Under the pieces are notes generated by a model. That model had not been told where the DNA came from, did no database searches, and saw only the letters and a list, made by a program, of their open reading frames with translations. From Actinostola sp. cb2023 (Eukaryota > Cnidaria > Anthozoa > Actiniaria > Actinostolidae), in contig JAUJYZ010001358.1 of assembly GCA_033675265.1 (NCBI GenBank), forward strand, positions 266,501 to 330,500: 64,000 bases of DNA. The letters are read 5' to 3'. Positions within the stretch are counted from its first letter, which is position 1. The number at the start of each line of letters is the position of its first letter. Positions 10,163 to 52,923 of this stretch are shown one piece after another. The position numbers and the translations under genes were made by a program.

Positions 10163-10198
<36 letters not shown>

Positions 10199-13100: not shown

Positions 13101-15246
13101 GTGTGGACGAAGCTTCGCTGTAATGGCTTGGCTGACAAGGCACAAACGACAGCACGAAACAGCAGCATCGGCACCACCGCTAGTCCAAGACCTCCCTCAT
13201 CGATGCGATGAGTGTGGACGAAGCTTCGCTGTAATGGCATGGCTTACAAGGCACAAACGACAGCACGAAACAGCAGCATCGGCACCACCGATAGTCCAAG
13301 ACCTCCCTCATCAATGCGATGAGTGTGGACGAAGCTTCGCTGTAATGGCCTGGCTGACAAGGCACAAACGACAGCACGAAACAGCAGCATCGGCACCACC
13401 GATAGTCCAAGACCTCCCTGATGTCAAACCAGAGCCTATCACTAGAGGCAACACCAAAGTGTATAAATGCGATGTGTGCGGAATGGAATTTCCATGGCCA
13501 TCGTGGCTCATGAAGCATCGTAAATTACACCAAAGAAAACTCACGAAAGTAAAGGTTCAGAAAGAGAAACCGAAGACGACTGGTAAGAAGAAGAAGAGGA
13601 AGAAGGCCGCAGTGGCAACTGACGCCGAGAACTTCGAAGGCAAGAATGTCAACGAAATGTTTGAAATGATTGAGAAAAACGGTGTCAAACAGTATGAATG
13701 CATAGCATGCAAGAAATCAACAGTCTGGCATACGGGGATTATATATCACATCCGGGTCCACCACACCCACGAGAGGCCATTCAAATGTCATATTTGTTCG
13801 AAAGGCTTTCATATGTCTGGTGACCTGACCAAGCACAACAGACGTCATACGGGAGAAAAGCCATTCTACTGCCAACATTGTAAGAAACGATTTGCAACAT
13901 CGCAGCAGGTAAGGAAGCACGAAGTTGTCCATTCCCAGACATCGCCTTTTCACTGTAAGCATTGCGGCAAAGGTTATCGTGATAGAAGTTCAGTGTGGAG
14001 GCACATAGCAAGGAAATCGTGTCCTCAAATGCCTCGAGTGAAAGCAGATTCAGAAAGCAAAACTAGTGCTACATCAGTGCAAAAGAAACAAAAGAAAACC
14101 CTTAAATCTGAAAGACAAGATGCTGATACCCAAACTTGCAATCCTGAAAAACTGGTTAAACTGGACAAACCTGATAAATCGAAAAAAGCTGAAAAACTGA
14201 ACAAACCTGAAAAACTGGACAAACCTGATAAATCAATAAAAGCTGAAAAGCTGAACAAACCTGAAAAACTGGTTAATCTGGACAAACCTGAAAAGCTGAA
14301 CAAACCTGATAAACTGGATAAACTAGTCAAACCTGATAAACTAGAAAAACGTGCCAAGATGAAGAAACCAGTAAAGAACAGCTTCAAAAAGATGGCGAAA
14401 AAGAAGACTTCTTTCCTGTGCAAGAACTGCAGCAAATCCTTCCCTAGCTCTGATTTATTCAAAGCTCATATTGAGAGCTACAAAGAAGCTGATCAAATCG
14501 TGTGCGAGTATTGTGGAAAGTGTTGGGTCCGCACTGCCGACCTCAAGCGGCACCTACGAGTTCATACAGGGGAGCGACCCTATCTTTGTCCCGATTGTGG
14601 CCTTGGCTTCAAAGTGTCCGACGCGCTTAAACGTCACATGCAAAAACTCCACCCAAAGTCCACTAAGAAGATGATTAAAGTGAAGACAGAGCCTGCCACT
14701 CCCGCTGAATCCAAACACTTCACAGTTGATACAACGGCGAGCACTAAAGATACCGAAGTAACGGACGCTGAAGATGTGCAGGAGCCTGTCGACACCCCCT
14801 CTGAGAAACTTCAAGAGGGTGAAAACCCTGATCCCACAAGTGATACACAATGTAGTGTAGAGGTACTTGAAGAACTGGACATCTCAGAACCACTTGTTCC
14901 AGAAAGTATTCCAAATGCACCAGACTCCCACGCAAATGAAGAGGTCAGCGGCGTTGCGTTAGAGGATAAACCAAAGGAAGCCCAAAACGGTATTGTTCCG
15001 GAAGTGGCGACTGAGGACGTTATAGAGCACCCAGCGATCGATTCCAAACCGATTGATACGAAAAAGGGTAATAATAAACAGACTCGAAGGTGTAGCTATT
15101 GTGGAAAGGTATTCTCTGGGCCAGGAAACCTAGCGCGCCACATTCGTCTGCATACCGGAGAAAAGCCATTCAAATGTAAAGAGTGTGGTGAATGTTTCAT
15201 GCGTACTGACATATTGACACAACATATAGGTAAATACCATTACTAG
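4286..15246 (+). CDS. PRDM9-like: PRDM9-like PR/SET domain zinc-finger protein
   Basis: Four coding exons are supported by matching splice phases: 4286-4343 (its exon opens at 4262 after TTCTAG), 8797-9077, 9866-10112 and 10817-15246, giving 1671 codons. A zinc knuckle (C-x2-C-x8-C-x2-H, residues about 21-36) precedes a PR/SET domain (about 35-185). That domain carries NWMRF, an EQNL..F stretch, IFYRT and a terminal WYEDEY, matching the PRDM9/7/11 type. WYxDEY is the motif that supplies a catalytic tyrosine in PRDM9, so H3 methyltransferase activity is plausible. The last exon encodes about 28 C2H2 or C2HC fingers, a tandem block of near-identical fingers, a Lys-rich repeat linker (14137-14356) and two C-terminal finger pairs. 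Only 19 residues precede the knuckle, so the KRAB and SSXRD domains of vertebrate PRDM9 are absent. An upstream 5' exon is missing from the model. Probable role: sequence-directed nuclear histone methylation. A meiotic role is inference. Confidence 0.9.
4375..4448 (+). repeat. tRNA-like sequence (SINE head or tRNA pseudogene)
   Basis: A 7-bp acceptor stem (GCCTCGG with TCGAGGC), a D-arm (GCTC..GAGC) and a perfect T-arm (GTGGG-TTCGAAT-CCCGC) are present, so box A and box B are intact. The anticodon stem (CCTGT with TTCGG) pairs poorly and no loop places T33 before a proper anticodon. I therefore do not call a functional tRNA. A T-rich 3' flank follows. It sits 31 bp inside the first PRDM intron. 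A tRNA-derived SINE head is the best guess. Confidence 0.55.
5150..5668. repeat. Compound repeat: about 70-bp unit alternating with (TTA)n
   Basis: A unit running 'AACATTTGGAAAAGCATATG' .. 'GAAAGAAAACAATTTATTGA' recurs at about 5171, 5270, 5415 and 5553. Each copy is separated by an expanded (TTA)n tract of varying length. The unit is highly conserved while the microsatellite tracts vary. The whole block lies in PRDM intron 1. Confidence 0.9.
5838..5945. repeat. G-rich tract with G-quadruplex potential
   Basis: Several runs of 6 to 16 G on the plus strand are spaced by 'TACTTACT'-like text. The spacing of four or more G-runs fits intramolecular quadruplex formation. Polymer runs this long may have assembly length error. 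Confidence 0.6.
6135..6420. repeat. About 88-bp tandem repeat, 3-4 copies
   Basis: Units contain 'GACCACTTAATAGAGGTGTA' and 'AATGCTAAAGCACTCTTTCA'. Copies start near 6180, 6250 and 6330 with few differences. This block is intronic and non-coding. Confidence 0.75.
6430..6600. mobile_element. Degenerate copy of the 'GAGTGGGAAA' foldback family
   Basis: It starts 'GTTTCCGTACGAGTGGGAAA' and contains 'TTTGATTGGATGAGA' and 'GGAAGCCATTTGAGTGTCAC'. Both motifs are shared with the better copy at 35138-35290. The right terminus here is lost or diverged. Confidence 0.65.
7135..7336. mobile_element. Poly-C containing element, second copy at 33.3 kb
   Basis: The ends are inverted: 'GGGCCATACACAGC' on the left and 'TATGTATGGCCC' on the right. 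The interior holds 'AGCAAGGCGAAAAAG' and long C runs at about 7172 and 7286, followed by 'CCTTGAATTTTGG'. The same order occurs at 33300-33463. Confidence 0.7.
7355..7610 (+). mobile_element. tRNA-derived SINE
   Basis: The head resembles a tRNA: 'GATGGTCTAGTGGTTTAAG', then 'CATTCCATCCCTGAC' as box B remnant. The body 'CCTGGACAAGACACTTTAC' .. 'TCACTCCACCCAGGTG' .. 'ATAAATGGGTACC' is typical of SINEs widespread in marine invertebrates. A related body fragment is visible at 63675-63735. Family name not assigned. Confidence 0.65.
7665..7872. repeat. Two-copy repeat shared with 60.4 kb
   Basis: Two diverged units of about 130 bp contain 'TGATCAAAATTCAAATTCT' and 'AGGAGAATTTAGAATTTGAT'. The same paired arrangement occurs at 60418-60612 inside the RRM gene, so this is a dispersed element that itself has an internal duplication. 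Confidence 0.7.
7925..8445. repeat. About 95-bp tandem repeat, 5-6 copies
   Basis: Units carry 'CACTTCATGGTTCTGTTGAG', 'AACAATGGTTCCAAGTC' and 'GGTTGGCATTGATTAAATAC', with several internal deletions. The last copy at 8430-8480 appears partly in inverted orientation. Located in PRDM intron 1. Confidence 0.8.
9160..9795. repeat. 21-bp minisatellite carrying TACTAAC in most units
   Basis: The unit is essentially 'TAACCGTACTAACTCATTGC' plus G, repeated with variation across about 630 bp in the intron between the two PR/SET exons. About 14 units contain the heptamer TACTAAC. The array is interrupted at about 9399-9432 by a SINE-tail fragment in reverse orientation. Confidence 0.9.
9397..9433 (-). 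repeat. SINE-tail insertion within minisatellite
   Basis: An (AAT)n run followed by 'CTGCATTTATATAGCGCAAA' breaks the 21-bp array. In reverse it reads as the GCGCTATATAAAT tail of SINEs. The array resumes on the other side in the same phase of its unit, so the insertion came after array formation. Confidence 0.6.
10386..10550. mobile_element. Foldback MITE in PRDM intron 3
   Basis: The arms of about 65 bp match well: 'CCAGACTTC' and 'GAGATTATTACAAAGGAAAA' on the left are answered by 'TTTTCCTTTGTAATAATCTC' and 'GAAGTCTGG' on the right, with a loop of about 40 bp. It lies between the second PR/SET exon and the zinc-finger exon. No coding capacity. Confidence 0.85.
12856..13419 (+). repeat. In-frame 111-bp zinc-finger tandem array (5 copies)
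   Basis: Five consecutive 37-residue units each encode one complete C2H2 finger (helix FAVMAWLTRH) plus the linker HETAASAPPLVQD. The unit length is 111 bp, so frame is kept on expansion or contraction. Four copies are almost identical at DNA level, with a few synonymous changes (for example GCC/GCT/GCA before TGG), an R to Q change and L to I changes. The first copy is the most diverged. This resembles the minisatellite structure of PRDM9 finger arrays, but here the base-reading residues are identical. Confidence 0.95.
14137..14356 (+). repeat. In-frame Lys-rich repeat linker of the PRDM protein
   Basis: Short repeated words such as KLDKPDK, AEKLNKPEK and KLVKPDK fill about 73 residues between two finger groups. 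The DNA repeats 'AAACCTGAAAAACTG'-like text. This is a low-complexity basic linker, likely disordered, and it may expand by slippage. Confidence 0.85.
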
Positions 15247-19526: not shown

Positions 19527-20424
19527 ATAACCCTTCGATAAATTTTCTTCGTCGACTTCAATGTTGAAGAAACCGAAACAAAATGACGGATGAAGAAAAC
19601 AAGTTTCATCGAGTTCAAATATCCGTTCCGTTTGAGATCTTTTCATGTGTAAACTTCTGAAAACGTTTTCGAAAATAAAAGATTGATAGTTTTTGAAGCT
19701 TTTTGAGTGGTTTTCTTGATATTTTGGGTTTTATTTGAGTGACTATTTTGGGCGCCGATTTTGACGTTTGTCAGCGATCGTTTTTCAAGGATCGAAAAAT
19801 TATAAAAATAGCTCAAATACCTGTCGTATCGACGTTAAAATCCCCATAAAGGAACAAGTAAACCACATGTATGTTGTACAAGCTAATTTACCTATTGAAA
19901 ATACATTACAGTCTTAAAAAAGTTCAGATAATTTCATTTTTCTCCAAAGTGGGGGATATCATCTCAAAACTGGGGGATATTACCTGACATCCGAATCGTA
20001 CCACGTGACCCGTTTTAACCAATGGGCGCACGCGAAAATTTATCGATGGGTTATAATAGGTGATAGTCTAATAGTTCGCTGTACATCCGTTTACACCGAA
20101 ACCTCGAAGGAATGCATCTCATGGGCTGAACCATTTGGTTCTATCTCATCATTCGGCACTATTTGCCGCAAGTCCATGTTCCTGATTTTCCATTGATGTG
20201 GTATCCTAGGTAACGAAGGGACTACTTCGTTGACGCTCGGTTCTTCTTCGGGTGGTTCTTCTTCCTTCTTGGAAAGTACAATGTCGCTACAAACGCGACT
20301 TAGTCGAAGGCCGAGTGCTTGGAGGCGGCCTTTTGGTCCCTAGTAACACATTAACGTACAAAGTTCAGTACACGATGGCACGCAAAATCTGCTTGCCATG
20401 GCGTGAATTTCAACTTAGGGAAGC

Positions 20425-20633: not shown

Positions 20634-23600
20634 TTAGACAACCAATATTCCCCATGCCCCACCCTGTAAACGTACCTGTTTCGTAGCCACGTCCCTAATA
20701 CAAGCATATATCCATTCCATTATCATAAAGATGAAGCCAAGACCAATACCGATACCCATAAAGATGAAGACACCAAGCATGTCCTTTAGACTAACGCGCT
20801 TAATGAACGTTGACCCTATGAATAGATCCAATAATGGAGATGTGGGTAACATCTTTGAGAGCAAAGCCGAACGTACGAACAAGTTTTCCTTGACAAGTTT
20901 TCCTTGACAAGGAAAAATTGACAATTTTTTGTCATCTACACGAGCAAGTTTTCCTTGACAAGTTTTCCTTGTGACAAGTTTTCCTTGACAAGGAAAAATT
21001 TGGCGATGTTTTGTCGTCTCAGGAGCAAGTCTTCCTTGTCAAGGAAAATTTGCTCGTGTAGATTCGGCTTAAAGTGCCTATGAAACGAAAAAACAGACCC
21101 CGTTTTTATTTGCTACTACGAAAGTTTACTATTTGCTTGTTTACATGCGTTAATAAAAAGTGAATTGAGCTTCAGGACCATTTTTTATTTCGCGCACGAA
21201 GTTGGGCATTTTGGGTTTCAAAGTGCGACAATTCCCGCTCGGTCAAACTATAGAAATGTGATGTCATAAGTTGTGCAAACAAAGGCATACACAACTTATG
21301 ACGTCACCGAGCCATTGTCAAGGGCCCAGTCTCTTGTCGCACATTTTGGTTGAAAATGATAATTTTCGAACCGCGAAAAGAAAATATTCGCACGCTCAAA
21401 GTCGATGTTTAAATACAGCAAATGTTCAGAGAAAGACCAAACAACAATAATGTACAATAAAACAAGGATCGACATTTTCGTTTCATAGGCACTTTAAGGT
21501 CCGCACTGTTGGTTTTCTAATTTATTCAATCTATATTTTGTTCATTTGTTTCTTTTAATCCTTCTCTGTTTCCTCTTTCTTCTCAGCTTTCTTTCCCACT
21601 TCCTCCTCTTTCCCACTCCGTGTCTCTTTCATCCTTTCTTCTCTCTTTCTAATTTTTCTTTTTTTTCTTTCTTTCTCTCTCTATCTTTCAGTTTCTTTCC
21701 GTTAATTCTTTCTCTTTTTAAACCTAATCATTCCAGTGCAGACAATCTCTTACCTCCTTTGCCGTTTTCTTTCTTCACATTATCAACAACAACCTTACAC
21801 GTGTCCTTGCCCGACCATTTGTGCTTCAGTTGGTCGATAAACAGATCTCTTTGAAGGCGGAATATTTCCATGTTGAACAGATTAGTAGTCGGAGACTGGT
21901 GAGGAAGGGCGAACCCATAACCGTACGTGTTCCCAAACCTGAGGTACAACAAATAGATGATTAAAGAACAGAGAGGGAGAGAGAGGGAGAGAGAGAGAGA
22001 GGAGACTAGAGACGAGATACTAAATGAAGCCAGCAATAGTCCCCTTCATAGTTCCCGGACCTTGCAATGATAGAGACCTTTTTTAACACCTTGGACAAAT
22101 TATTATTCACATGTCTCTATCATTGCAAGGTCACCGTTGGTCTCGCTTCGATGCAAAGGCTCGGCTATCTTTCAAGATGGCGCAGGGAACTGTGAAGGGT
22201 TCAATTTTTTTGTGGTTTGTAATTATTACTTTGGAAGTTATCTAGTCTACACAAGATGCCGTCCAGTCATCAATATTCATAATGTCTCATGATGTCACAC
22301 GTCATGTATGACGTCATAGGAAAATTATTTACAAGATCGCAGCAGCCATCAGTTTTGAATGAGAAAAATGACGTCAAAAATTAATACGTCATATGTCACG
22401 CACGCAGCGAACTTAAAGTTTACAACCATGTTTTGCCCATTGCGTTACTCCAAATGTCACGTAATGTGTCCTCTTAGTGTCACTTGTTATTTTCATGGTT
22501 ATAAGGTTGGTGAAGGTTTTCTTGCATCCCAAGCCCGAAATGCACTATGGGCGATGTGAATGGAATCAGCGAAAGGTCACAACAATACTAAATTTGAAAC
22601 TTGAACTTAAGTCGGCATATTTTCTTCTGTACGTATGTGCATGCTGACATTATTTACATATGATCCACAATACATTTCGGGCTTGGTGTGCAAGATGCAA
22701 GAAAACCTAATTCACCAACTTTTTTTGAAATAGCTGTATGTTCTACAATAGATGTACAACCAATTACACCAATTATACCACTGAAGTATATATTAAGTCA
22801 TTATATCGGGTGCATTCTCATGCCTCTGCTTCATCCTTTGTAAGAAAACCCTAAAAGCATTACCCATAATGCACCCGATATGTTGATAGAAATGAAAGCC
22901 GTAAATTTTGCAATTGGCTGTAAATGCAATAAATATAAAAATATAATATTACGTCATCAAGTCACGCCCAACGTAAGTCAACTTTGTCGTCTTGGTGTTT
23001 TTCCCCTTCGTGTTTGTTATCGTTTGTATACAGCTATTTGTACAAACGGTACGATGATTGCTATAGTGCAGATTTCGTATGACCGTGAAAAATCACGGCA
23101 CGGTCACGGCACGGCACAGTTACGGACACGGCACGGTAACGGCACGAACACGGCACGGTCACAACACGGCACGGTCACAACACGGCACGGTCACGGCAAG
23201 GCACGGTCACGACACGTCACGGCACGCGGTCACGGCACGGTCACAACACGGACACGGAACGGATACGAACACGGAACGGTCACGGACACGGCACGGACAC
23301 GGCACGGATACGGCACGGACACGGCACGGACACGGACACGACACGGACACGGCACGTATACGGCACGGACACGGCATGATCACGGCACGGTCATGGTCAC
23401 GACACGGACACGACACGGCACGGTCAAGGACACGGCACGGCACGGCACGGTCACGACACGGACACGGCACGGTCACGGCACGGTCACGGCACGGACACGA
23501 CACGGACACGGACACGGACACGGCACGTACACGGCACGGTCGCCACACGGACACGGCACGTACACGGCACGTACACGGCACGGTCACGACACGGACACGG

Positions 23601-25550
23601 CACGTACACGGCACGCACGCACGCACGCACACGGCACGTACACGACACGGACACGGCACGGTCACGACACGGACACGGCACGTACACGGCAGGGACACGG
23701 CACGTACACGTTAGAGATAAAAAGAGATAATGTTACCCACAATTCCTTTCGGTCTTTCATCGACAACATAAATCGGTTATATAAATCAAGAATACGCGCG
23801 AGAGATGAATAGAAATAACGCTTTACCTACCCTCCAATAACCTTGAGTATACCACAGTATTTCTTCTGTCGAGTGATGTATTCCAGTATAGGTCGGTCAG
23901 CGATAAAAGCAAAGTTATTGTTCATGACACGATCGATGGCAGTGTCGTAATCTGGCATCCAGGTCTTCTGCTGTTCCATGAACTGCCCCATTACCAGAAA
24001 CCTGACATAAGCAACGAACTGCTAAGCCGGGGGTGTAGGGCATACTTAAGGTACAGACACACACTGCAATTTATGGCAAGTTTGTTGCAGCGTGTGTCCA
24101 CCCCTGCAATGTTGCTCGCGATTGACCAGCACGCGCTCACACGACGTAATTTGTTGCTCGCAATGTTGCAGAAGTAGGACTCGATTCAACTTCTGAAATA
24201 TTGCTGGCAATGTTACGCGCAACATGTGGTTGACACGCCAAGGTACGGACACACGGTGCAACATTGCGCGCAACATTCCCTGCAACAACATGTATTGTTG
24301 CAGCGTGTGTTCACCTCTGCAACATGTTGCGCGCAATGTTGCAGAAGTAGAATCGAGTCCTACTTCTACAAAATTGCGAGCAACAAATTACGTCGTATTA
24401 GCGCGCGCTAGACAATTGCGAGCAATGTTGCAGGGGTGGACACACGCTGCAACAAATTTGCCAGCAATATTGCACGCAATGTTGCACCGTGTGTACGCGA
24501 CCACGATTCCGGCCGCAACATTTCGTGCAACATGTTCTATTGCAGCGTGTGTCGTCCAGCTCTGCATCATGCAGGTTTTTCACTAGCTAGCAACACAAGC
24601 AAAAGTCACATGGAAATGACTCTAAAATGATTACCTTGGTACATCGGTATCCAAGAAAAACTTCTGTAGCTGAGAATCCATCAGAGTCCCATACTTTATC
24701 TTAGTCTGCAGAGCCAAATCCTCTACACTTTCAATAGGAGTCTGCATGCGCGACACTGTTAGATGCGCTGCTAGATTGGCCGTGTACGTAGCGTTGAATA
24801 TCAATATAGCAAACCAGAACACCAACACAGCGATTTTACCAGAGAGTGACGCAGGGTGTTGTCCCCCCTGACGAAGGTAGCATAGCCACGACGACCATAT
24901 CGCGTTGACGAAACTGAACGTGTTCTTGGTGGCTTTGATTTCACGTTCAACCTGACACGAAAAGTGGTAAAATATGACTGAAATTTGAGTAAGTAGAGGT
25001 TTCGATCATACGGTTTCGAGTTCAATTTGATTTTCAAAGAGTATCAAAACTGCACGAGCCCGTAGGACGAGTGCAATTTGAGCTCTTTGAAAAACACACG
25101 CGAGTGCAAATTATTCCAAATTGAACGAGAAATCGTATGATTACCAATTAATAATATTCAATTTGCACTGCAGTGCAAATTACTTTTCAACTGTACTGCT
25201 CTTAGCCAATCAGAACCAAGCATTTTTTTTCATGAATATTATTAAGCCGGTTACAGACGAGCAAATACAACTTGTCAATGCAAAACTTGTCATAGAAAAC
25301 TAGCCTGCGTAGCAAGCGTTTTATAGGCCGCAAGGAAGAGTTTTCGTTTTTTGGCCGCGCGAAAGATAGAAAACTTGCTCGTCTGTAAGGGTCTTAATCA
25401 TGTATATATATATGTGGCTCTGACTTGAAAAAATGGCACAAAAAAATAATTGATTTAATTCTCAATATTTTAAGGCTCAATATAATGAAAGAATAACTGT
25501 GATACATCAGAGAAATAACTAGCTGCTAATTCTGTCATAGCAGCAGTGTA

Positions 25551-25581
<31 letters not shown>

Positions 25582-25594
25582 GTGGTGTTGATGA

Positions 25595-25628
<34 letters not shown>

Positions 25629-25682
25629 GCACTGGTAATGATGACGACGATGATGATGGTAATGATGATGATGATAATGATA

Positions 25683-25714
<32 letters not shown>

Positions 25715-25983
25715 TGGGGTGGTGGTTGATGATATGATGATTGCTGGCGTATTTCATCGAGTATGCTAAATGTTCCTAGGCGTTATGTGGGTATATAAAC
25801 GATTGATTGATGATGATGATGATGCACTGGTAATGATGATGATAATGGTGGTGGTGGTGGTAGTTGTGGTGGTAGTTGATGATATCTGGTGGCGATGAAG
25901 AGTCTTTGATGATGATGATGATGATGATGGTGCACTGGATTTGATGATGATGGTGGTGGCGGTGGTGCACTGGTAATGATGAC

Positions 25984-26067
<84 letters not shown>

Positions 26068-29000
26068 TGGGGTGGTGGTTGATGATATGATGATTGCTGG
26101 CTCATTTCGTCGAGTATGCTAAATGCTCCTAGGCGTTATGTGGGTATATAAACGATTGATTGATTGACGATGATGATGATGCACTAGTAATGATGATGAT
26201 GATGGTGGGGGTGGTGGTAGTTGTGGTGGTAGTTGATGATATCTGGTGGCGATGAAGAGTCTTTGATGATGATGATGATGATGATGATGGTGCACTGGAA
26301 GTGATGATGATGATGATGGTGGTGGTGGTGCACTGGTAATGATGACGATGATGATGATGATTATGGTAATGATGATGATGATGATGATGATACTATTATT
26401 ACTGATACCTTTAGTTTATTAGGATGCTGGGCGTAACGTCCATAGAAACCAAATGGACTCAACATACTAAAGTTCCACAATACAAGTCCCATTGCCACCA
26501 CCATACCACATATAGCAATCCATAGGTCTCTATGTGAACACAAACAATAGCATTATCATGTAGAAATATAAATACATGGATGGATGAATTATAAATGGAT
26601 GGATGGATGGATGGATGAATGAATTGTAAATGGATGGATGGATGGATGGATGAATGGGTGCATGAATAAATGGATGAATGGATGATTGAATAAATGGATG
26701 AATGGATGGATGAATAAATAAAATATAAATACATGGATGAATAAATAAATGGCTAAATGAATAAATAAATGAATGAATGAATGAATACATTTTTAAATGA
26801 ATAAATGAATGACTAACTAACTAACTAAATACATATCGCAAGGTTTGAGTATTCACCGTCAACGTTCTTAACTGTACATACCTGTGATAGGGCCTCAAAA
26901 ACCGGAAGTAGTTTTCGTGCACCTTGTTGACCCGCATCACAAAAGCGATGCCAAATGTCATGTATGGGTGGGTGAAATCAACCACATTCTGTCCGTCGGA
27001 GTTTATGGTCAGCGGTGCAATACTAAGTTTTGCCCTCTGAAAGCAAAACAAATGTTGTTGTAAAGATCACGTATATTATTTTCTTCACATAAGTATGGCG
27101 AATAAAGGGGACACGCCAGAGCAGCCCATAAGTAAGTAAGTAGTATTTATAGTTTATTTATTCACGATAAAACTCGTCAGAACGGCCAAAAGGGAGCCGG
27201 AAGGGAGGGATAGATGCATGGAGGAAGGAGCAAGGGACGAGGAAGTAAGAAGGAATAAAGGCAGGAAGGAAGGAGCAAGGGACGAGGATGTAAGAAGGAA
27301 TAAAGGTAGGAAGGAAGGAGCAAGGGACGAGGAAGTAAGAAGGAATAAAGGCAGGAAGGAAGGAGCAAGGGACGAGGAAGTAAGAAGGAATAAAGTCAGG
27401 AAGGAAGGAGCAAGGAATGAGAAAGTAAGAATCAGCAAGGGAGGAAGGAGCAAGGGAGGAAGGAGCAAGGGAGGAAGGAGCAAGGGAGGAAGGAGCAAGG
27501 GAGGAAGGAGCAAGGGAGGAAGGGCAAGGGGCAAGGGGAAGGAGCAAGGGAGGAAGGAGCAAGGGAGGAAGGAGCAAGGGAGGAAGGAGCAAGGGAGGAA
27601 GGAGCAAGGGAGGAAGGAGCAAGGGAGGAAGGGCAAGGAAGGAGCAAGGGAGGAAGGAGCAAGGGAGGAAGGAGCAAGGGAGGAAGGAGCAAGGGAGGAA
27701 GGAGCAAGGGAGGAAGGAGCAAGGGAGGAAGGAGCAAGGGAGGAAGGAGCAAGGGAGGAAGGAGCAAGGGAGGCAGGGAGGAATAGAGGCAGGGAAGGAA
27801 GGAGTAAGGGAGGAAGGAGCAAGGGAGGCAGAGAGGCATATAAGGTGTATAACAATGTTTTTTTTTCGCACAGTGTCTACTCACTATTTGAAAGTGGCAA
27901 CGTAATGACGTACCTCGTCGATGATCTCACGCATGACCCCGTTCCACTTCCCAGTCATTCTGTCTCTAGTTCCAAACTTCCCATCAGGCGCAAGAAAGAT
28001 TTTATATCGAAATCCAAGTTCTTTACTCATGTAGTTCAAGATATCAATGCTTAGTCCCTCGAACTGGTCAGTTTGATTGTTACCTCCATGTGAGGACTTC
28101 TTTCTCATTACAAATGGGGGAGCCTACAGAAAGACATTCATCATAATCATCATATCATCACTAACGCCATCAGTCGTTTCCCCTAAAAAAAAACCATAAT
28201 GCCTCGCGAACACACTAGTTACCAGTTTGTCTGCGCATTTCCAAAATATAAATTGAAGGTTGTGTGTGATAGTCTCATATTAATAAATTTATTTAAAAAA
28301 AAAATAGATTCACAAAACGTCCCATAATTCCTTGCGATCACACTAGTTACCAGTTTTACCGCGCATTTCCAAAATTAATTACCAATAGATTCACAAAAAC
28401 GTCCCATAATTCCTTGCGATCACACTAGTTACCAGTTTTTCCGCGCATTCCCGAAAAATAGATTACAGATAGATTCATTACTTACCAAAACTGACACAAC
28501 ATCAACGGTTTTGTTCTTCAGGTAGTTAGGAATGGCAAAGGGGACCTTAGTACTACCAGACGTCCACATCACTGTCGTTTGATTTATTGTAGTAAGACCT
28601 CTATTAGAGTCCCATTCGGCAAACTAAAGGTAACAAGACGCTCTATAAGCGTTCACTCGGCGGACTTCAGCAATGAGCCTTCGGTTTCCTCAGCGGCACA
28701 GAGCGCATGCGCCTTGGTACCAAGTTGGCGATTTGTGGCCATAAGAAAAAGAAAGCCCATCTTTCAACGTGCGTGCCACAGGTAGCCCGCCGAATAATTA
28801 TGGATAAACTCACCTTCACCGAACCAGAACCTCGAACATTAATGACGTCAAAGTTGGCACATCTTGGTTCTCCTGTTTCCTCGAAACTCAAGTCATGCAT
28901 GGCGCCGTCCATGGTTGCCTAGCAACAACACACAGGAAAACGACGACGAATTGATTTAATTAACAATGCAGTACGGGACAAAACAAAGATGGCGGATTAA

Positions 29001-32000
29001 GTAACATTTACCACAATCCATCGCGCGCTGATAAACCAGTAGACCTCGAGTTTTTAAAACATCACAATTAGCAAGTGTGAAGCTGTTTCCTGCTTTACTG
29101 ATTGATGTGAACGTGTCAGATAGTTTGTAGATGTGAGTAGTACTGATTTAGGTTAAGTATGAAGCTGTTACCTGCTTTATTTATGTGAACGTGTCAGACC
29201 GTTTCGGTAGCTACACGGATGTGAGTGGTACTGATCTAGGTTCGCAAAGGATTACTGGGTAAAATGTACGGCCGCCATCTTTTTTTCTGTACGGTGGGTT
29301 GGAATGAAAGACACAATTTTCACAATTTCCTTTGCATGTGCTGGCGCTTCATCTCCTTGCGTCACTAATGACATCCTAGGGCTCATCTCCAGTCCCCCTC
29401 CTGTCCCCCTTCCCTGTGAGAGCCTGGTACGCAGGCTAGTGACATCACAGTGTACCTTTTTGATGTTGTGGAAAAGTTCCGCTCCACCTTTTTTGACCTG
29501 CTTATCGTGAGAGCAAATACCCATGGACAAGCCTGACGACGATAGTTGTATGCCTTGATGTAGTGTATCGTGAATCCCTTTAGCAGCAATAAGCACCGAG
29601 TCAAACACGTACCCAGCTGATGCCTGTCATAGACAAGATTACAAGATCAATCATGTAATGATGTACCGGCCAACTCAGGAACCTCTAAATATTATTTCAA
29701 TATCAAAACATTATTGATTCTGAAACTGTGGTGAAACGAGAGTTGACACCCGCCATCTTGTCAGCCGCATTAGGCACCTTTTAAGGCTTTAAACACCCAT
29801 TCCACGATAAACGAGGCGAATAGGGTATAAGAATTGACAAAAATATTATGGAATACTTTCTATTAAAAAATTAGGTACTCCAAAAGTCAAATTATTCAAA
29901 TTTGAGTATCTGGAAAAAAAATGATGTAATCTTTTAATGCAAAAAATTGCGAGCATATAATCGATAGGCTGTTGTTTCCCAATCGTGAAAATTATAAAAA
30001 ATAGAAATAAATCCTTAAAAAATTCTTGTATTTTATGAGAAACAGAATAGACGACTCATATGTGCTCGGGTGGTGCAAAACATACCGCTAAAACAGCAAA
30101 CACACAAAAATATACCTGAAGAAAGATACTTTTCTCTATTTTCAGTTTTTTTTAAATCAGAGAGCATATATGTCAAAATAAATACTGTATAGGATACTTC
30201 TACCGTAGAATACGTCTATGGGACGATATATTTTATATTTGTCGATGAGTTTACCTTGAACGATTATAGTTTGAGTCAGAAATAATCAGAATTGTGCTAT
30301 GAATAGACGTTGGGGAAAAAATTATATATTATATTGGTAACTACAAAAAGTAACGGAGGTTTCTACGAGGCAGATATGTTTAGTAAAATCATATAGCCAT
30401 TAATATAATCATGATAAACATTTATCATTGTGTTCTTCACGATCTCTGATGAATTATTAAATACTATTGACTTGCTATAAAACATGCAATCATTGGCATG
30501 CATGAACATTAGCGTGCTTGCTGCTCATCCATTTGAGGTATCATTATAAACTAATAATAACCGAATTTGTCCAAACACTCGATGTTCTTGGTTTATAAAT
30601 GTTTAGCTGCCGACAATGCAGCTGATGAGTTGTCGAGAGTAATATATATCACTACAGCAATTTGCACTAAGATAGATCGGAGAACACATTTGGTAACGGA
30701 GGTTACTGTTTCGTTCATCTGCTGATTTTCTTGATTTTCCAGTTTAATAAATCAAAAATCAGAGTTTTAAGCCTCTCTGGATGCAACGGACCCTTGCTAA
30801 GATGCCTGGTAGAGATTTAAAATCACTCTCTACAGAGGTTTCGTCGATTGACAATACTCTCTGGCTTCTACCACAAGAGAAACAATATGGCGGATACAGC
30901 TTAGTTCCAACCTCGATCTCGAGCAGCTTAGTGGACACTGTTTGTACTTAAGATATCACTCTCTTTGTGTCGTCAAACATACGCATTTCACGGTGCAGCT
31001 TAGCATTCCATCTTCGATGCTTAAAGTCCCTATTAATCTCCCGAGTGCATGACGTCGAATAGCCCGAGAACCAATCAGATTGCACGATGTATGTAGATTA
31101 ATTCATGAGTTGGTAATTAACTATAAATAGATTGTAAATATGTCATATTTGTGTTTTAAATAAAGTATGTATGTAGGTTCATGAGTTGGTAGAGATAGAG
31201 AACCAATCAGATTGCACGATGATGTATGTGTTGGTGTAGGATGTATGTCATGAGTTGGTAGAGATAGAGAACCAATCATATTGCACGATGTATGTAGGTT
31301 CATGAGTTGGTAGAGATAGAGAACCAATCATATTGCACGATGTATGTAGGTTCATGAGTTGGTAGAGATAGAGAACCAATCAGATTACACGATGTATGTA
31401 GGTTCATGAGTTGGTAGAGATAGAGAACCAATCAGATTACACGATGTATGTAGGTTCATGAGTTGGTAGAGATAGAGAACCAATCAGATTGCACGATGTA
31501 TGTAGGTTCATGAGATGGTAGAGAGAGATAGAACCAATCAGATTGCACGATGTATGTAGGTTCATGAGAGTTGGTAGAGATAGAGAACCAATCATATTGC
31601 ACGATGTATGTAGGTTCATGAGTTGGTAGAGATAGAGAACCAATCAGATTACACGATGTATGTATGTAGGTTCATGAGATGGTAGAGATAGAGAACCAAT
31701 CAGATTGCACGATGTATGTAGGTTCATGAGATGGTAGAGATAGAGAACCAATCAGATTGCACGATGTATGTAGTTCATGAATGGTAGAGATAGAGAACCA
31801 ATCAGATTGCACGATGTATGTAGGTTCATGAGTTACACGATGTATGTAGGTTCATGAGTTGGTAGAGATAGAGAACCAATCAGATTACACGATGTATGTA
31901 GGTTCATGAGTTGGTAGAGATAGAGAACCAATCAGATTACACGATGTATGTAGGTTCATGAGATGGTAGAGATAGAGAACCAATCAGATTGCACGATGTA

Positions 32001-35000
32001 TGTAGGTTCATGAGTTGGTAGAGATAGAGAACCAATCAGATTACACGATGTATGTAGGTTCATGAGATGGTAGAGATGGTAGAGATAGAGAACCAATCAG
32101 ATTGCACGATGCATGTAGGTTCATGAGATGGTAGAGATAGAGAACCAATCAGATTGCACGATGTATGTAGGTTCATGAGTTGGTAGAGATAGAGAACCAA
32201 TCATATTGCACGATGTATGTAGGTTCATGAGATGGTAGAGATAGAGAACCAATCAGATTGCACGATGTATGTAGGTTCATGAGATGGTAGAGATAGAGAA
32301 CCAATCATATTGCACGATGTATGTAGGTTCATGAGATGGTAGAGATAGAGAACCAATCATATTGCACGATGTATGTAGGTTCATGAGATGGTAGAGATAG
32401 AGAACCAATCATATTGCACGATGTATGTAGGTTCATGAGATGGTAGAGATAGAGAACCAATCATATTGCACGATGTATGTAGGTTCATGAGATGCATGGT
32501 TCTTACCGTGATCTCAGAGGATCGATTCAAAGTCTTCATTTTATCCTCAATGTTGTGCTGTAGATTTCTGAACTCGGTTCCTTTGCCAATGGACGGTCTC
32601 AAACCAACCAGACCTCTCATGTATGGGGGGACAACGCGAAGAGATCCCACCAAATGTTTCTGGAAAGAAATACAATAAGTATTGTTTAATAAACGAGCAG
32701 GAATCCATGGATATAGTTTACAGATCTTTTCTTTTCGTCTTCAAAGCAAATTACGATGATGAGCGTCTTTATGATACTCTACTTACATCATTGTTTCCAA
32801 GATCCGAGAAAATCCAAGCCCACTCCTCGAGGTGAATCAATCTCTGCGCAACCTGTAGTAACTCCTTGACGGCCCAGAACGGACAGAACACGATCACGAC
32901 GCGTAGATCAGCGTTTGACAGAGCTCTCAGTTCACGATATGGAAAGATCCTTCGCTTGGACATTGGATGCGGTGGGAACAGACGATCCAGAGGGATGTCG
33001 ATTTCGTGCTCCGCTGCGAGGATTCTGAACGCATTTTTGCCTTGTGAATCTATGAGTGTTAAGAGCAATAATCAATAACCAAAAACAAACGGGGCCCTAC
33101 TGACTGAATGGTAAGGGGTGGACTACTTGTCGAAAAAAATTATCGTATGAGTGGGAAGTAGTTGTGGTACGGTTCGTGCCGTGTCCAAGCATTCTGATTG
33201 GTTGAGCAATGATTTTGCGCGCTGTGATTGGTTGAATAGACTGTCTTCGATTCCGTACCGTGACGGTAAATCCGGCCGTACCGTACGTTCCCACTCATAC
33301 CAGAGCCATACACAGCTCATGATCAGGGACAGGAGGGGCAGTTGCCTCCTAGCAAAGCGACAAAGATAGCAAAAACTAAAATAACTGTACTATTTATTTA
33401 TTTTTGTTGTTGTTTTAAAAATACGTACTGCCCCCCTTGAATTTTGGTTTATGTACGGCCCTGCGTCGACAATGCCTACTATGATTATCTTACATTCTTT
33501 GTAGTCGTCGCCCCGTAGACCTAAAACAGCAACTCTCTTCCATTTGTAGTTCCTAACGATATCTATTAGGGCCTGGGCCTTCAGCTTCTCGGACGGGCTC
33601 ATGCGCAGTAAATACCCATACTCCTGTGAATTTAGATCGGAAGTGTCCCAGCTGGTCAGCGGTAAGATTTGTGGTACATGCGCGATTGACGTCAAGGGGC
33701 CTGTTACTGGAATGGCGGCGCTCGTCATTGGGCCAATCAGAGCAACGACTCCAAGGGAAAGAAGCTTATTGGCTGCAAGCAAAATATGGTATGACGTCAT
33801 CAGCTGGAGGAGCATGGCAGCACTGGCTCTGCAGTACTTTATAAATAAAAAGATAGATGGATAGACAGATGGACAGACAGACGGATGGGTGAACAGACAG
33901 ATGGACAGACAGACGGATGGGTGGATAGACAGATGGACAGACAGACGGATGGGTGAACAGACAGATGGACAGACAGACGGATGGGTGAACAGACAGATGG
34001 ACAGACAGACGGATGGGTGAACAGACAGATGGACAGACAGACGGATGGGTGAACAGACAGATGGACAGACAGACGGATGGGTGAACAGACAGATGGATAG
34101 ACAGACGGATGGGTGAACAGACAGATGGACAGACAGATGAATGGGTGGACAGACAGATGGAGAGACAGACGGATGGGTGGACAGACAGATGGACAGACAG
34201 ACGGATGGGTGGACAGACAGATGGACAGACAGATGAATCGGTGGACAGACAGATGGACAGACAGACGGATGGGTGGACAGACAAATGGACAGATGGACAG
34301 ACAGACGGATGGATGGGTGGACAGACAGATGGACAGACATCCAGACAAACAGACAGACAGGTCGACAGGTATTACTCTACCTTTATGAATATTATCATAA
34401 TCGTCATCAGGGTCGACCTTCTCTACGTATCCCCTCAACGGTTTACCAAGGAAGCTACCGTCACCATTCACCTTGTCAATTGCCAAATAAAAAGCAATTT
34501 CTTCAGGAGACTTCTGAAAGCGAGGTTCGTTGTAGCTTAAAATCGCCCCTTGTGACGTAATAAAGAAATAATTAGTTAGTGACCTTTGTTCAGAAGTCAG
34601 GTGCAAACCAAAATGGCCGCCATGAAGTCACGTGCAAGCCAACAATAACAACATGGCCGCCATGAAGTCACGTGCAAACCAACATGGCCGCCATGAAGTC
34701 ATGTGCAAACCAACATGACCGCCATGAAGTCATGTGCAAACCAACAATAACAACATGGCCGCCATGAAGTCACGTGCAAACCAACATGGCCGCCATGAAG
34801 TCACGTGCAAACCAACATGGCCGCCATGAAGTCACGTGCAAACCAACATGGCCGCCAGGACGTCACGTGAAGTCTATCTTTAACTATTTGTTTTCTAAAT
34901 GACTGCAGAGTGCAATGATTTAATTTTATTGTTTCCTTGCATGTAACTAAACATTTCAGTCTATTAAAGATTTTCAAAGCCGTAACACCTGAATTGAAGA

Positions 35001-36095
35001 AAAACAGAAGCTCTAGCGGCGAGAAATCTATAGATTCCGCATAAAAATTCATGAAGTCACGCCTTCATTACGCTACAGACTGAAGCCACAAGTAGCTGAA
35101 TTCGAAATAATCATCATAGCGAAAAATACACTTAGAGGCGTTTTCGTATGAGTGGGAAAGTCACGGTACCGCGCCGTATTGAAAAAGTTTGATTGGATGA
35201 GATGCATCTGCACGCTTTTTGATTGGTTCAGAAAGGAAGCCATTTGAGTGTCACGGTACCGTAGGTTTCCCACTCATAGAAAACGACTCAGTATCACGCA
35301 TATAAGCCACCGAGTTGGTTTTTGCTCATTTTAAAATAGGATTTTTTCATTCCTATTTCTTTTATCTGTTTTGCACGAAAATGGAGCCACGCATTACTGA
35401 ATCAAACGCTTTTAACAGAGGTGTCGCTTAATGTGCAAAAGTTGAGAAAGCAGTGTTGTTCATGTGGTAATTGAATGTTAATGAGTAACTTGTTCAGGCG
35501 GCTAAACAAAAACAAATCTAAATCTAATTTCACAGCGATATTGTTCGTTCGTTCACGATATTTTCGTGGCCTTAAACTGTGTCTCAGTTGTAGCTCGAGT
35601 GCCGAGTGAAGAGCTACTTCAAATCCGTGCTTATTTTATATAGGATTTTGTCAGAAAATTTCCTTAGTTCAAAGTGTATTAAAGAAAATGTCTAAGTTTC
35701 GTGCTGCGAAGCAATGTCAACTCAGTGCAGTTGCCTTGGGCTGCAAGGCAAAAAAAAGTCACATTAACCGATAGACTAAAAGAAGGAAATCTAAAATAGC
35801 AAGAACAAATAGTTCACAAAGTCTTTCTTTAATTCTTGAAAACATAGTAGTTTTCATTTCAAACTAGAAAGTACTTCATGTATTAAAAGGTATTTTGTCG
35901 GAAAATCCAAATGTTTCTAAATCAGTTAAAATTAACAGTTGACCAAAATCCTGAATAAATAATTTTGAGGGTGAATTATATTGTTACTAATATGTTTACC
36001 GTTATTTTTGCGTTAAACTCACCTATTCGTATCTCATTCCTTTGGCCAAGAGAGACGAAGACTTGAAATAGTAAAATACAAGTCAATGCCAACAT
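20634..36095 (-). CDS. AMPA/kainate-type ionotropic glutamate receptor subunit
   Basis: Fifteen exons join in frame: 36095-36023, 34548-34381, 33772-33494, 33049-32787, 32659-32507, 29623-29456, 28918-28814, 28623-28486, 28123-27914, 27036-26882, 26529-26409, 24951-24635, 24001-23831, 21938-21754, 20815-20676 (882 codons). The order is signal peptide (about 1-18), ANF-like N-terminal domain, S1 (about 440-570), M1, M2 pore and M3 with ATYTANLAAHLT in one exon, S2, and M4. S1 keeps DGKFGTRD, WNG and APLTI and S2 keeps KWSGKDTC, as in AMPA receptors. Odd points: the ligand carboxylate arginine after APLTI is Gly534, the GluA2 Ser654/Thr655 positions are Gln705/Leu706, Glu705 is Asp752, and the Q/R pore site is genomic Arg638. 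The last exon either stops at 20634-20636 after 13 more codons or splices at AACAG|GTACGT (20676) to an unseen exon. Exon 15 start is the least certain border. Confidence 0.94.
20880..21070. mobile_element. 'AAGTTTTCCTTGACAAG' foldback family, rearranged copy
   Basis: Multiple direct and inverted copies of 'CAAGTTTTCCTTGACAAGG' occur, with 'TGTCATCTACACGAGCAAG' and a right end 'TTGCTCGTGTAGATTCGGCT'. A cleaner copy is at 44810-44933. The left part touches the region upstream of the last receptor exon and supplies decoy AG acceptors on the minus strand. Confidence 0.75.
21068..21500. mobile_element. 430-bp TIR element
   Basis: The termini 'AAAGTGCCTATGAAACGAAA' and 'TTTCGTTTCATAGGCACTTT' are perfect inverted repeats of about 20 bp. 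The interior holds a further inverted pair 'ATGACATCATAAGTTGTG'-like with 'CACAACTTATGACGTCA'. No open frame. It lies within the last receptor intron. Confidence 0.85.
22030..22200. mobile_element. Foldback MITE, copy 2 of the 18.5-kb family
   Basis: 'CTTGCAATGATAGAGACC' .. 'CATGTCTCTATCATTGCAAG' forms the inner hairpin, followed by 'GTTGGTCTCGCTTCGATGCA'. The outer arms are 'AGTTCCC' and 'GGGAACT'. In intron 13-14 of the receptor. Confidence 0.8.
22500..22725. mobile_element. Foldback element in receptor intron
   Basis: The arms are 'GGTTGGTGAAGGTTTTCTTG' with 'CCCAAGCCCGAAATGCA' and the complement 'ATTTCGGGCTTGG' with 'CAAGAAAACCTAATTCACCA'. Just upstream, at 22300-22380, TGACGTCA-like palindromes cluster. 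Confidence 0.75.
22815..22885. mobile_element. Short copy of the 'ATCGGGTGCATTATGGGTAA' foldback
   Basis: Left 'ATATCGGGTGCATTCTCATG' and right 'TTACCCATAATGCACCCGAT' are inverted. A longer copy is at 37790-37985. Confidence 0.75.
23085..23712. repeat. CACGGN hexamer-type satellite
   Basis: Over 600 bp consist of CACGG followed by a variable base or two (CACGGA, CACGGC, CACGGT), giving open frames on both strands that encode HGHGT or PCPCR-like repeats. No conserved protein is implied. Located in the receptor intron between S2 exons. Confidence 0.9.
24048..24570. mobile_element. Nested foldback element with 'GCAACATTGCGCGCAAC' words
   Basis: Two related inverted-repeat arms appear: 'GGTACAGACACACACTGCAA' and 'GGTACGGACACACGGTGCAA' on the left, with 'GTTGCACCGTGTGTAC' on the right. 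'CAATGTTGCAGAAGTAG' pairs with 'CTACTTCTACAAAATTG'. This fits an element inserted into a copy of itself. Confidence 0.75.
24985..25240. mobile_element. Foldback element, related to 43.4 kb
   Basis: 'TCATACGGTTTCGAGTTCAA' pairs with 'TTGAACGAGAAATCGTATGA'. 'TCTTTGAAAAACAC' and the tail 'GTACTGCTCTTAGCCAATCA' are shared with 43375-43560. Located in the receptor intron next to the pore exon. Confidence 0.7.
25545..26398. repeat. (GATGAT)n region with about 360-bp higher-order duplication
   Basis: GAT/GGT trinucleotide tracts alternate with unique words. 'AGTATGCTAAATG' .. 'GGCGTTATGTGGGTATATAA' occurs at about 25760 and 26117, and 'GGTGGCGATGAAGAGTCTTT' at about 25887 and 26245. The spacing of about 358 bp shows a tandem duplication of the whole compound block. 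Confidence 0.85.
26570..26825. repeat. (GGAT/GAAT)n tetranucleotide repeat
   Basis: Runs of GGAT, GAAT and AAAT tetramers lie between the M1 exon and the preceding S1 exon of the receptor. Open frames through it (for example poly HPSIHPSI on the minus strand) are artefacts. Confidence 0.9.
27205..27835. repeat. 15-bp 'GGAAGGAGCAAGGGA' minisatellite
   Basis: Two sub-arrays are visible. Longer units of about 60 bp with 'GACGAGGAAGTAAGAAGGAA' span 27215-27420. A pure purine 15-bp array spans 27440-27770. One strand is almost all purine, so triplex or H-DNA formation is possible. Confidence 0.9.
28190..28466. repeat. Three-copy repeat 'CACACTAGTTACCAG'
   Basis: Units have 'CCCATAATTCCTTGCGATCA', 'CACTAGTTACCAGTTT' and 'CCGCGCATTTCCAAAA', starting near 28195, 28320 and 28402. 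Located in the receptor intron between exons 8 and 9. Confidence 0.75.
29075..29245. repeat. Two-copy tandem repeat, about 82 bp
   Basis: 'GAAGCTGTTTCCTGCTTTA' .. 'GTGAACGTGTCAGA' .. 'GATGTGAGT.GTACTGAT' is present twice in direct orientation with small indels. Confidence 0.7.
29640..31060. other. Unannotated part of receptor intron 5
   Basis: About 1.4 kb of AT-rich, apparently unique sequence. I see no exon, RNA gene or clear repeat in it. Confidence 0.5.
31070..32495. repeat. 52-bp minisatellite with a CCAAT box in every unit
   Basis: About 25 units of roughly 52 bp read 'AACCAATCAGATTGCACGAT', then 'GTATGTAGGTTCATGAGTTG', then GTAGAGATAGAG. Variation is limited to a few positions (CAGATTGC/CATATTGC/CAGATTAC, GTTGG/GATGG) and small indels. 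It fills the 3' half of receptor intron 5 and ends about 15 bp from the exon at 32507. Confidence 0.95.
33135..33300. mobile_element. 'GAGTGGGAA' foldback family, copy 2
   Basis: The termini are 'GTATGAGTGGGAAGTAG' and 'CGTTCCCACTCATAC'. The interior holds two 'CTGATTGGTTGA'-type boxes and the pair 'GGTACGG' with 'CCGTACC'. Confidence 0.8.
33300..33465. mobile_element. Second copy of the 7.1-kb poly-C element
   Basis: Starting 'CCATACACAGCTCATGATCA', it carries 'AGCAAAGCGACAAAGATAGC' and 'ACTGCCCCCCTTGAATTTTG', and ends 'TGTACGGCCCTG'. The C runs are much shorter than at 7.1-7.3 kb. Confidence 0.75.
33845..34372. repeat. 32-bp 'GGACAGACAGACGGATGG' minisatellite
   Basis: About 16 units of GACAGACAGATGGACAGACA plus GACGGATGGGTG text lie in receptor intron 2. 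The right edge is 9 bp from exon 2. Long open frames through it are simple-repeat artefacts. Confidence 0.95.
34605..34872. repeat. 31-bp minisatellite pairing GGCCGCCATG with GTCACGTG
   Basis: Eight units contain 'ACATGGCCGCCATGAAGTCA' followed by CGTGCAAACC, two of them separated by 'AACAATAACA'. Most units keep TCACGTG, with some TCATGTG. It lies in the first intron of the receptor, about 60 bp upstream (in gene sense) of exon 2. Confidence 0.9.
35138..35292. mobile_element. 'GAGTGGGAAA' foldback family, copy 3
   Basis: 'GCGTTTTCGTATGAGTGGGA' and 'TTTCCCACTCATAGAAAACG' are the inverted ends. The interior has 'GTCACGGTACCG' and 'GTGTCACGGTACCG' in inverted relation, and 'TTTGATTGGATGAGATGCAT'. 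Confidence 0.85.

Positions 36096-47726: not shown

Positions 47727-52923
<5,197 letters not shown>

What the first reader, a model, noticed from the sequence alone, without database searches (positions are those of the whole stretch)
26882..27036. Glutamate receptor without the ligand-binding arginine
In AMPA, kainate and NMDA receptors the arginine four residues after APLTI binds the ligand alpha-carboxylate. Here the text is APLTINSDGQNVVDF, so this position is Gly534, in an otherwise well-conserved S1. In S2 the GluA2 Ser654/Thr655 positions are Gln705/Leu706 and Glu705 is Asp752. At least three classical contacts are changed while pore, M3 and fold residues are kept. The gene looks intact (15 in-phase exons), so this suggests an orphan receptor with another ligand or an auxiliary subunit rather than a pseudogene.
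Basis: partly seen in the sequence, partly recalled or inferred. Interest (0 to 1): 0.85.

Follow-up and report, generated by a model that had tools for sequence, protein, structure and literature searches.

The report
Anemone glutamate receptor missing ligand-gripping arginine
A sea anemone gene encodes an intact glutamate-receptor-type ion channel in which the one arginine that normally grips amino-acid neurotransmitters has become a glycine, while its coral relatives kept the arginine, so it probably answers to something else or works only as a partner subunit.

Summary
Confirmed, with corrections. The window is from the sea anemone Actinostola sp. cb2023. On the minus strand, 16 exons (not 15) encode an intact 964-residue ionotropic glutamate receptor; exon 10 is exactly 26882-27036 and the alpha-carboxylate arginine (GluA2 R485) is Gly534. 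Of 213 aligned rows, 209 have Arg; the four exceptions are this gene and its Nematostella orthologue. Seven orthologues (one named, the coral Oculina) and five paralogues keep Arg, so one Arg-to-Gly change on the sea-anemone stem suffices. The other "lost contacts" are not losses: Gln705, Leu706 and Asp752 are identical in all seven Arg-bearing orthologues. Nine of ten other pocket positions are invariant in nine orthologues, and the binding domain is conserved like the pore, so the gene is not decaying. Probably Epsilon subfamily. Receptors lacking R485 are already reported (placozoan GluE2-alpha; changes at R485 or 705 in 28 of 122 proteins), so the kind is known; this case was not found in my searches. 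Most likely an orphan receptor retuned to a carboxylate-free ligand, or a modulatory subunit; function untested.

The parts
36023..36095 (-). exon 1: start codon and signal-peptide-like stretch MLALTCILLFQVFVSLGQRNEIRI (aa 1-24)
   Evidence: GT donor, phase 1 joins exon 2 in frame; not supported by transcripts here
32507..34548 (-). exons 2-5 (34381-34548, 33494-33772, 32787-33049, 32507-32659): amino-terminal domain, first part
   Evidence: GT-AG, phases match; exon 3 acceptor set after alignment with orthologues; Pfam ANF_receptor in the NCBI model of the same gene
28486..29623 (-). exons 6-8 (29456-29623, 28814-28918, 28486-28623): rest of amino-terminal domain and linker to S1
   Evidence: identical to P0001
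27914..28123 (-). exon 9: S1, first half of the ligand-binding domain, with Phe453 (GluA2 position 450)
   Evidence: Pfam Lig_chan-Glu_bd in P0001
26882..27036 (-). exon 10: S1 strand APLTINSDG; Pro527, Thr529, and Gly534 (codon GGA) in place of GluA2 Arg485
24635..26529 (-). exons 11-12 (26409-26529, 24635-24951): M1, pore loop with Arg638 at the Q/R site and Gln642 four residues on, M3 TYTANLAAHLT, start of S2 with Ser704, Gln705, Leu706
20676..24001 (-). exons 13-15 (23831-24001, 21754-21938, 20676-20815): rest of S2 with Asp752, Ile755, Tyr781 and the S2 cysteines, then M4
20091..20339 (-). exon 16: cytoplasmic tail and stop codon

Best explanation
The gene is an intact, probably Epsilon-type ionotropic glutamate receptor subunit of a sea anemone. 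On the sea-anemone stem lineage the arginine that clamps the ligand's alpha-carboxylate changed to glycine, once, while the rest of the pocket was kept. Shown here: the sequence, the intact gene model, the single Arg-to-Gly change and its direction, and conservation of the other pocket residues and of the whole binding domain. Inferred: without the arginine the clamshell can no longer hold a free alpha-amino acid in the usual pose, so the subunit is not gated by glutamate or glycine in the usual way. Most likely mechanism (about 0.4): the retained aspartate (Asp752) and hydrophobic pocket hold an amino group of a ligand without a carboxylate (an amine-like molecule), much as amine-sensing insect IRs lack this arginine while acid-sensing IRs keep it. 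In Actinostola this would probably happen in heteromers, because the pore Q/R site is encoded as arginine. Confidence in the evolutionary and structural statement is about 0.93; the number below is for the whole statement, mechanism included.
For: 16 in-phase GT-AG exons without stops. Arg in 209 of 213 rows, Gly only in this gene and its Nematostella orthologue. The window and Nematostella form a clade (bootstrap/SH-aLRT 100/98) beside seven Arg-bearing orthologues (100/99 for that seven and for all nine), with Arg in the five paralogues next to them; one change on the tree of 36 rows, built with the trait's own column left out. Nine of ten other pocket positions are invariant over nine orthologues against 114 of 265 other binding-domain positions (one-sided Fisher p 0.004). 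Window-Nematostella identity: S1 96 of 133 (72%), S2 108 of 140 (77%), M1-M3 88 of 115 (77%), amino-terminal domain 216 of 404 (53%). The Nematostella protein is predicted to keep the clamshell: ten-residue block means of pLDDT 86-97 in S1 (loop 1 at 78) and 87-95 in most of S2, but 51-79 around the odd insert of the RefSeq model. Insect precedent: Arg kept in acid-sensing IRs and divergent in amine-sensing IRs (PMC7882480, passages). Arg at the Q/R site in the window and in all seven coral-clade orthologues.
Against: No ligand, current, expression or structure was measured for this gene or its orthologues. The pocket-conservation contrast is not significant for the two anemones alone (9 of 10 against 193 of 265, p 0.21), so it mostly reflects the Arg-bearing relatives. 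Gly instead of Arg may still allow weak amino-acid binding. The IR precedent is not strict: the moth receptor CpomIR41a1 has the arginine although Drosophila IR41a is amine-sensing and lacks it (PMC12147327, passages). The Q/R-site arginine is Ser in Nematostella. Only two named sea-anemone species gave orthologues.
Confidence: 0.45

Rival explanations
1. Modulatory, ligand-insensitive subunit: the protein assembles with an Arg-bearing paralogue and sets conductance, calcium permeability or trafficking, while gating comes from the partner's binding domain.
For: Arg at the pore Q/R site in Actinostola and in the seven coral-clade orthologues; PMC12226733 (passage) notes that mammalian AMPA and kainate homotetramers with four Q/R-site arginines conduct poorly, which would favour heteromers. 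An Arg-bearing paralogue is present in Nematostella and Actinia (P0011, P0121). Fold and pore are conserved.
Against: The pocket has not decayed, though a ligand-free site would be free to (significant over nine orthologues, not for the two anemones alone); Nematostella has Ser at the Q/R site; no assembly data.
Confidence: 0.35
2. Constitutively leaky or ligand-inhibited channel: loss of a backbone contact uncouples gating from agonist, as reported for Trichoplax AKDF1, which lacks the position-705 acid.
For: PMC12226733, section 6 part 2, reports that the natural lack of D705 in T. adhaerens AKDF1 gives constitutive leak currents blocked by ligands, glycine most.
Against: Here the acid is kept and the arginine is lost, a different contact; the M3 motif TYTANLAAHLTV is the same as in the aligned Arg-bearing orthologues.
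Confidence: 0.1
3. Still an amino-acid receptor with a different pose: another group or bound ion replaces the arginine, for instance the anemone Lys522 (AKLSIAPLTI), where orthologues have Asp or His.
For: Both anemones have Lys at that place; six of the seven coral-clade orthologues have Asp and one has His.
Confidence: 0.07
4. Relict on the way to a pseudogene.
For: No transcript evidence for Actinostola here; the NCBI model is partial and mis-spliced (P0001).
Against: 964 open codons over 16 in-phase exons; Nematostella orthologue with the same Gly and 72-77% identity in S1/S2; end branches 0.18 and 0.17, not flagged as long.
Confidence: 0.03

Closest known systems
Coral-clade orthologues (P0003-P0009; only P0006 is named, Oculina patagonica)
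   Same: Same orthologue group (100/99), same residues at nine other pocket positions (Phe, Pro, Thr, Ser, Gln, Leu, Asp, Ile, Tyr)
   Different: They keep the arginine; 55-59% identity to the window over residues 460-905
Nematostella vectensis orthologue P0002 (named 'kainate 2 isoform X2'; P0010 is another model of it)
   Same: Same Gly, same orthologue group
   Different: Ser instead of Arg at the pore Q/R site; its model has an odd 22-residue stretch in S2 and lacks part of M4
Epsilon iGluRs, e.g. amphioxus GluE1 and placozoan GluE1alphaA (glycine-gated; PMC6307864; PMC12226733)
   Same: Ser653, hydrophobic 655, Asp705, extra residues between M1 and M2 relative to kainate receptors
   Different: GluE1alphaA is modelled to bind glycine through R485 and D705; here R485 is Gly
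Placozoan GluE2alpha receptors (PMC12226733)
   Same: Epsilon receptors reported to lack R485; consequences unknown
   Different: Predicted by their authors to bind glutamate; their sequences were not examined here
Amine-sensing insect ionotropic receptors IR41a, IR76a, IR92a (PMC7882480, passages)
   Same: Diverged at the S1 arginine that acid-sensing IRs keep
   Different: Arthropod chemosensory family with highly divergent binding domains; tuning IRs lack a typical amino-terminal domain, which is present here

Membership tests
Animal ionotropic glutamate receptors | Amino-terminal domain, S1/S2 binding domain, pore with M1-M4, in this order | tested here: met
Animal ionotropic glutamate receptors | Arg in S1 that binds the ligand carboxylate | tested here: not met
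   Gly534. Reported lacking in other iGluRs too, so it defines classical ligand binding, not the protein superfamily
Epsilon subfamily | Groups with Epsilon receptors apart from AMPA, kainate and delta | tested here: inconclusive
   28 of 36 rows (those with names: cnidarian, amphioxus and one annelid) separate from the eight AMPA-, kainate- and delta-like rows at 100/100, but no sequence labelled Epsilon by its authors was available; P0033 has the Ser653/Trp704 described for GluE1
Epsilon subfamily | Extra residues in the M1-M2 loop | tested here: met
   Seven more residues than GluK1/GluK2 in the printed alignments
Epsilon subfamily | No loop-1 cysteine pair outside ctenophores | tested here: met
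   APPFVMRKKSSHGGNNQTDQFEGL has no Cys
NMDA-Cnidaria class | Groups with NMDA receptors | not tested
   No sequence named as NMDA was put in the trees; the sequence search placed GluK1/GluK2 first
Glycine-type binding site | Ser653, hydrophobic 655, Phe732, with R485 and D705 | tested here: not met
   Ser, Leu and Asp present; Tyr at 732 and Gly at 485; rule
Insect-type IR | Orthology to arthropod IRs | not tested
   No IR was included on purpose; the comparison is by analogy only

The most novel reading that the evidence does not exclude
Sea anemones have an iGluR retuned from amino acids to a carboxylate-free ligand such as an amine, by one Arg-to-Gly change in an otherwise nearly unaltered pocket: an amine-gated receptor evolved independently of the insect IRs.
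Probability: 0.3. Interest if true: 0.75.

Novelty: new variant of a known kind. Interest (0 to 1): 0.45.

Why it matters
The arginine was present in 209 of 213 rows compared here and holds the amino-acid carboxylate in classical iGluRs. Receptors lacking it are known by sequence, but what they do is not. Here one placed step (after the coral-anemone split, before Nematostella and Actinostola parted) separates orthologues with and without it, in a pocket otherwise almost frozen. A coral/anemone pair, plus the single-residue swap in each direction, would directly test whether loss of the arginine makes an orphan, an amine receptor, a leak channel or a modulatory subunit.

Tried and rejected
Second exon 10 with Arg: tblastn of the window's and the coral-clade's exon 10 against the window found only 26881-27036; the other hits had E of 2.6 or worse. 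Shifted arginine: rejected, no gap in the alignment here. RNA editing back to Arg: A-to-I editing can turn AGA into a Gly codon, not GGA into Arg (own knowledge), so it would not restore the residue. Pseudogene: rejected. The first gene model had 18 extra residues at exon 3; corrected after alignment; the extra residues are also in the NCBI model P0001. Placing exon 5 failed on a mistyped splice context and succeeded.

Looking for more anemones: searches (786 matches, 120 listed; 8 matches; only the 7,996 candidates sharing most words were scored) gave orthologues only from Actinostola and Nematostella among named anemones. One search, queried with the Nematostella paralogue P0011 (158 matches, 120 listed; 7,997 candidates scored), found an Actinia tenebrosa paralogue with Arg (P0121), so Actinia is in the collection; but P0121 was not among those listed, so absence of an Actinia orthologue is only weak evidence of loss.

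No model coordinates reached the Python box, so pocket distances, docking and surrogate-residue geometry were not done. The spliced window protein is not contiguous in the DNA and was therefore not folded; the Nematostella (P0002) and coral-clade (P0003) orthologues were folded instead. Whole-protein TM-scores are low (0.30-0.42 by query length in the listed rows) because domain orientation differs; they are no evidence on the binding domain. No dN/dS was computed: nucleotide sequences of the orthologues were not at hand.

Rows left out: P0001 and P0010 (second models of the two Gly genes) from the trees and from the counts; the careful tree used 36 of 213 rows and the quick tree 44 of 121.

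Literature: seven searches; by titles and abstract openings none listed a paper on this gene or on R485 loss in sea-anemone Epsilon receptors. PMC6307864 (sections 7, 9 and 11, part 1 of section 6, passages) reports 28 of 122 proteins with changes at R485 or 705, particularly common in amphioxus Phi and in NMDA-Cnidaria; its residue figure supplement was not seen, so I cannot say whether the Nematostella gene is among the 28. PMC12226733: abstract, part 2 of section 6, section 15 and passages seen. PMC7882480, PMC12147327, PMC13335744, PMC10861852: passages only. GluA2 numbering follows the first two papers; I assigned the matching columns.

Full report
What is there. The window is from the sea anemone Actinostola sp. 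cb2023: the NCBI protein P0001 of that species matches the window's gene without a difference over 531 + 163 residues, around a 46-residue stretch of intron read as coding (taxonomy). On the minus strand, 16 exons between 36095 and 20091 give a 964-residue ionotropic glutamate receptor; all 15 introns are GT-AG, phases agree and there is no internal stop. Exon 10 is exactly 26882-27036.

The observation. In S1 the protein reads AKLSIAPLTINSDGQNVVDFTHPYMTFG. The GluA2 Arg485 column holds glycine, codon GGA. I aligned 212 proteins from three searches with the window: 209 of 213 rows have Arg, four have Gly. The four are the window, P0001 (the same gene), and P0002 and P0010 (two models of one Nematostella gene). 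Only listed hits were available (120 of 786; 8 of 8; 120 of 158), so the 213 rows are those most like the queries, not a sample of all iGluRs.

Direction of change. In a tree of 36 rows chosen from the 213, with the Arg column left out, the window and Nematostella pair (100/98), next to seven orthologues (100/99 for the nine), next to five paralogues (100/100 for the 14). All twelve of these relatives outside the pair have Arg, and the fewest changes is one. Of the seven orthologues only P0006 bears a name (Oculina patagonica, a stony coral by own knowledge). A first, quick tree of 44 rows gave the same grouping. So the arginine was lost on the sea-anemone stem, not in Actinostola alone. End branches of window (0.18) and Nematostella (0.17) are not flagged as long.

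What else changed. At positions 450, 478, 480, 653, 654, 655, 705, 708 and 732 all nine orthologues are identical (Phe, Pro, Thr, Ser, Gln, Leu, Asp, Ile, Tyr); 704 is Ala in the window and Ser in the other eight; 485 is Gly in two and Arg in seven. So 9 of 10 pocket positions other than 485 are invariant, against 114 of 265 remaining binding-domain positions (one-sided Fisher p 0.004). For the two anemones alone the contrast is 9 of 10 against 193 of 265, not significant (p 0.21). Among binding-domain positions (434-568, 690-830) where six of the orthologues and four paralogues agree on one residue that neither anemone has, 534 is the only one also constant in the eight far rows checked; outside the binding domain, position 650 in the pore region (Lys for Arg) behaves likewise. 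Identity of window to Nematostella is 53% in the amino-terminal domain, 72% in S1, 77% in S2 and 77% in M1-M3.

Fold. The Nematostella orthologue and the coral-clade P0003 were folded with 58-row alignments (mean pLDDT 82.8 and 85.1). Both keep the iGluR architecture; GluK2 chains rank first in Foldseek and by Z, with AMPA, NMDA and plant GLR chains close behind.

Subfamily. The protein has features described for non-ctenophore Epsilon receptors (PMC6307864, section 7): residues added between M1 and M2, no loop-1 cysteine pair, and a clade with amphioxus rows of which P0033 has the Ser653/Trp704 described for GluE1. No sequence labelled Epsilon by its authors was in the data, so this is likely, not proven. 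By the published rule (Ser653, hydrophobic 655, Phe732 for glycine) the orthologues are mixed, since 732 is Tyr.

How it may work. R485 and the acid at 705 hold the ligand's carboxylate and amino group (PMC12226733, section 6 part 2). With Arg gone and Asp kept, the site should prefer ligands without an alpha-carboxylate (inference). In Drosophila IRs the arginine is kept in acid-sensing and divergent in amine-sensing receptors (PMC7882480, passages), with an exception in a moth IR41a (PMC12147327, passages). The rival is a modulatory subunit: Arg at the pore Q/R site in Actinostola and the coral clade suggests heteromers. A third possibility is a leak channel, as reported for a Trichoplax receptor lacking the 705 acid. 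None was tested. [quoted passage not shown]

Novelty. Loss of R485 is already in print for placozoan GluE2alpha, with consequences unknown, and 28 of 122 proteins of newer iGluR groups have changes at R485 or 705. The sea-anemone case with Arg-bearing coral orthologues was not found in seven literature searches, which cover open-licence papers only. It is a new variant of a known kind, well placed for a test.

Noticed in passing
window 9848-15246, + strand: PRDM-like gene: a PR/SET exon (Pfam PRDM2_PR 92 bits) followed by a 1,481-codon C2H2 zinc-finger reading frame with five 111-bp tandem units, 97% matches (12859-13419), as expected of a recently homogenised zinc-finger array.
   Followed up: partly
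window 24871-24873, - strand (codon of Arg638): The pore Q/R site is encoded as Arg in the genome, as in all seven coral-clade orthologues, but Ser in Nematostella; the residue four on is Gln here, Glu or Asp in the other orthologues.
   Followed up: partly
P0001 (NCBI QZH41_013510): The deposited protein model of this gene is partial and mis-spliced: it starts 18 residues too early at exon 3, reads 46 residues of intron as coding before the pore exon, and ends after exon 13.
   Followed up: yes
window 52005-52241, - strand: Reading frame with a ubiquitin-conjugating enzyme match (Pfam UQ_con).
   Followed up: no
window 27200-27830, 25470-26420, 58170-59890: Introns and intergenic DNA full of simple repeats (GGAAGGAGCAAGGGA-like, GAT and ATC/CAT units), the first two directly beside coding exons of the receptor.
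   Followed up: no
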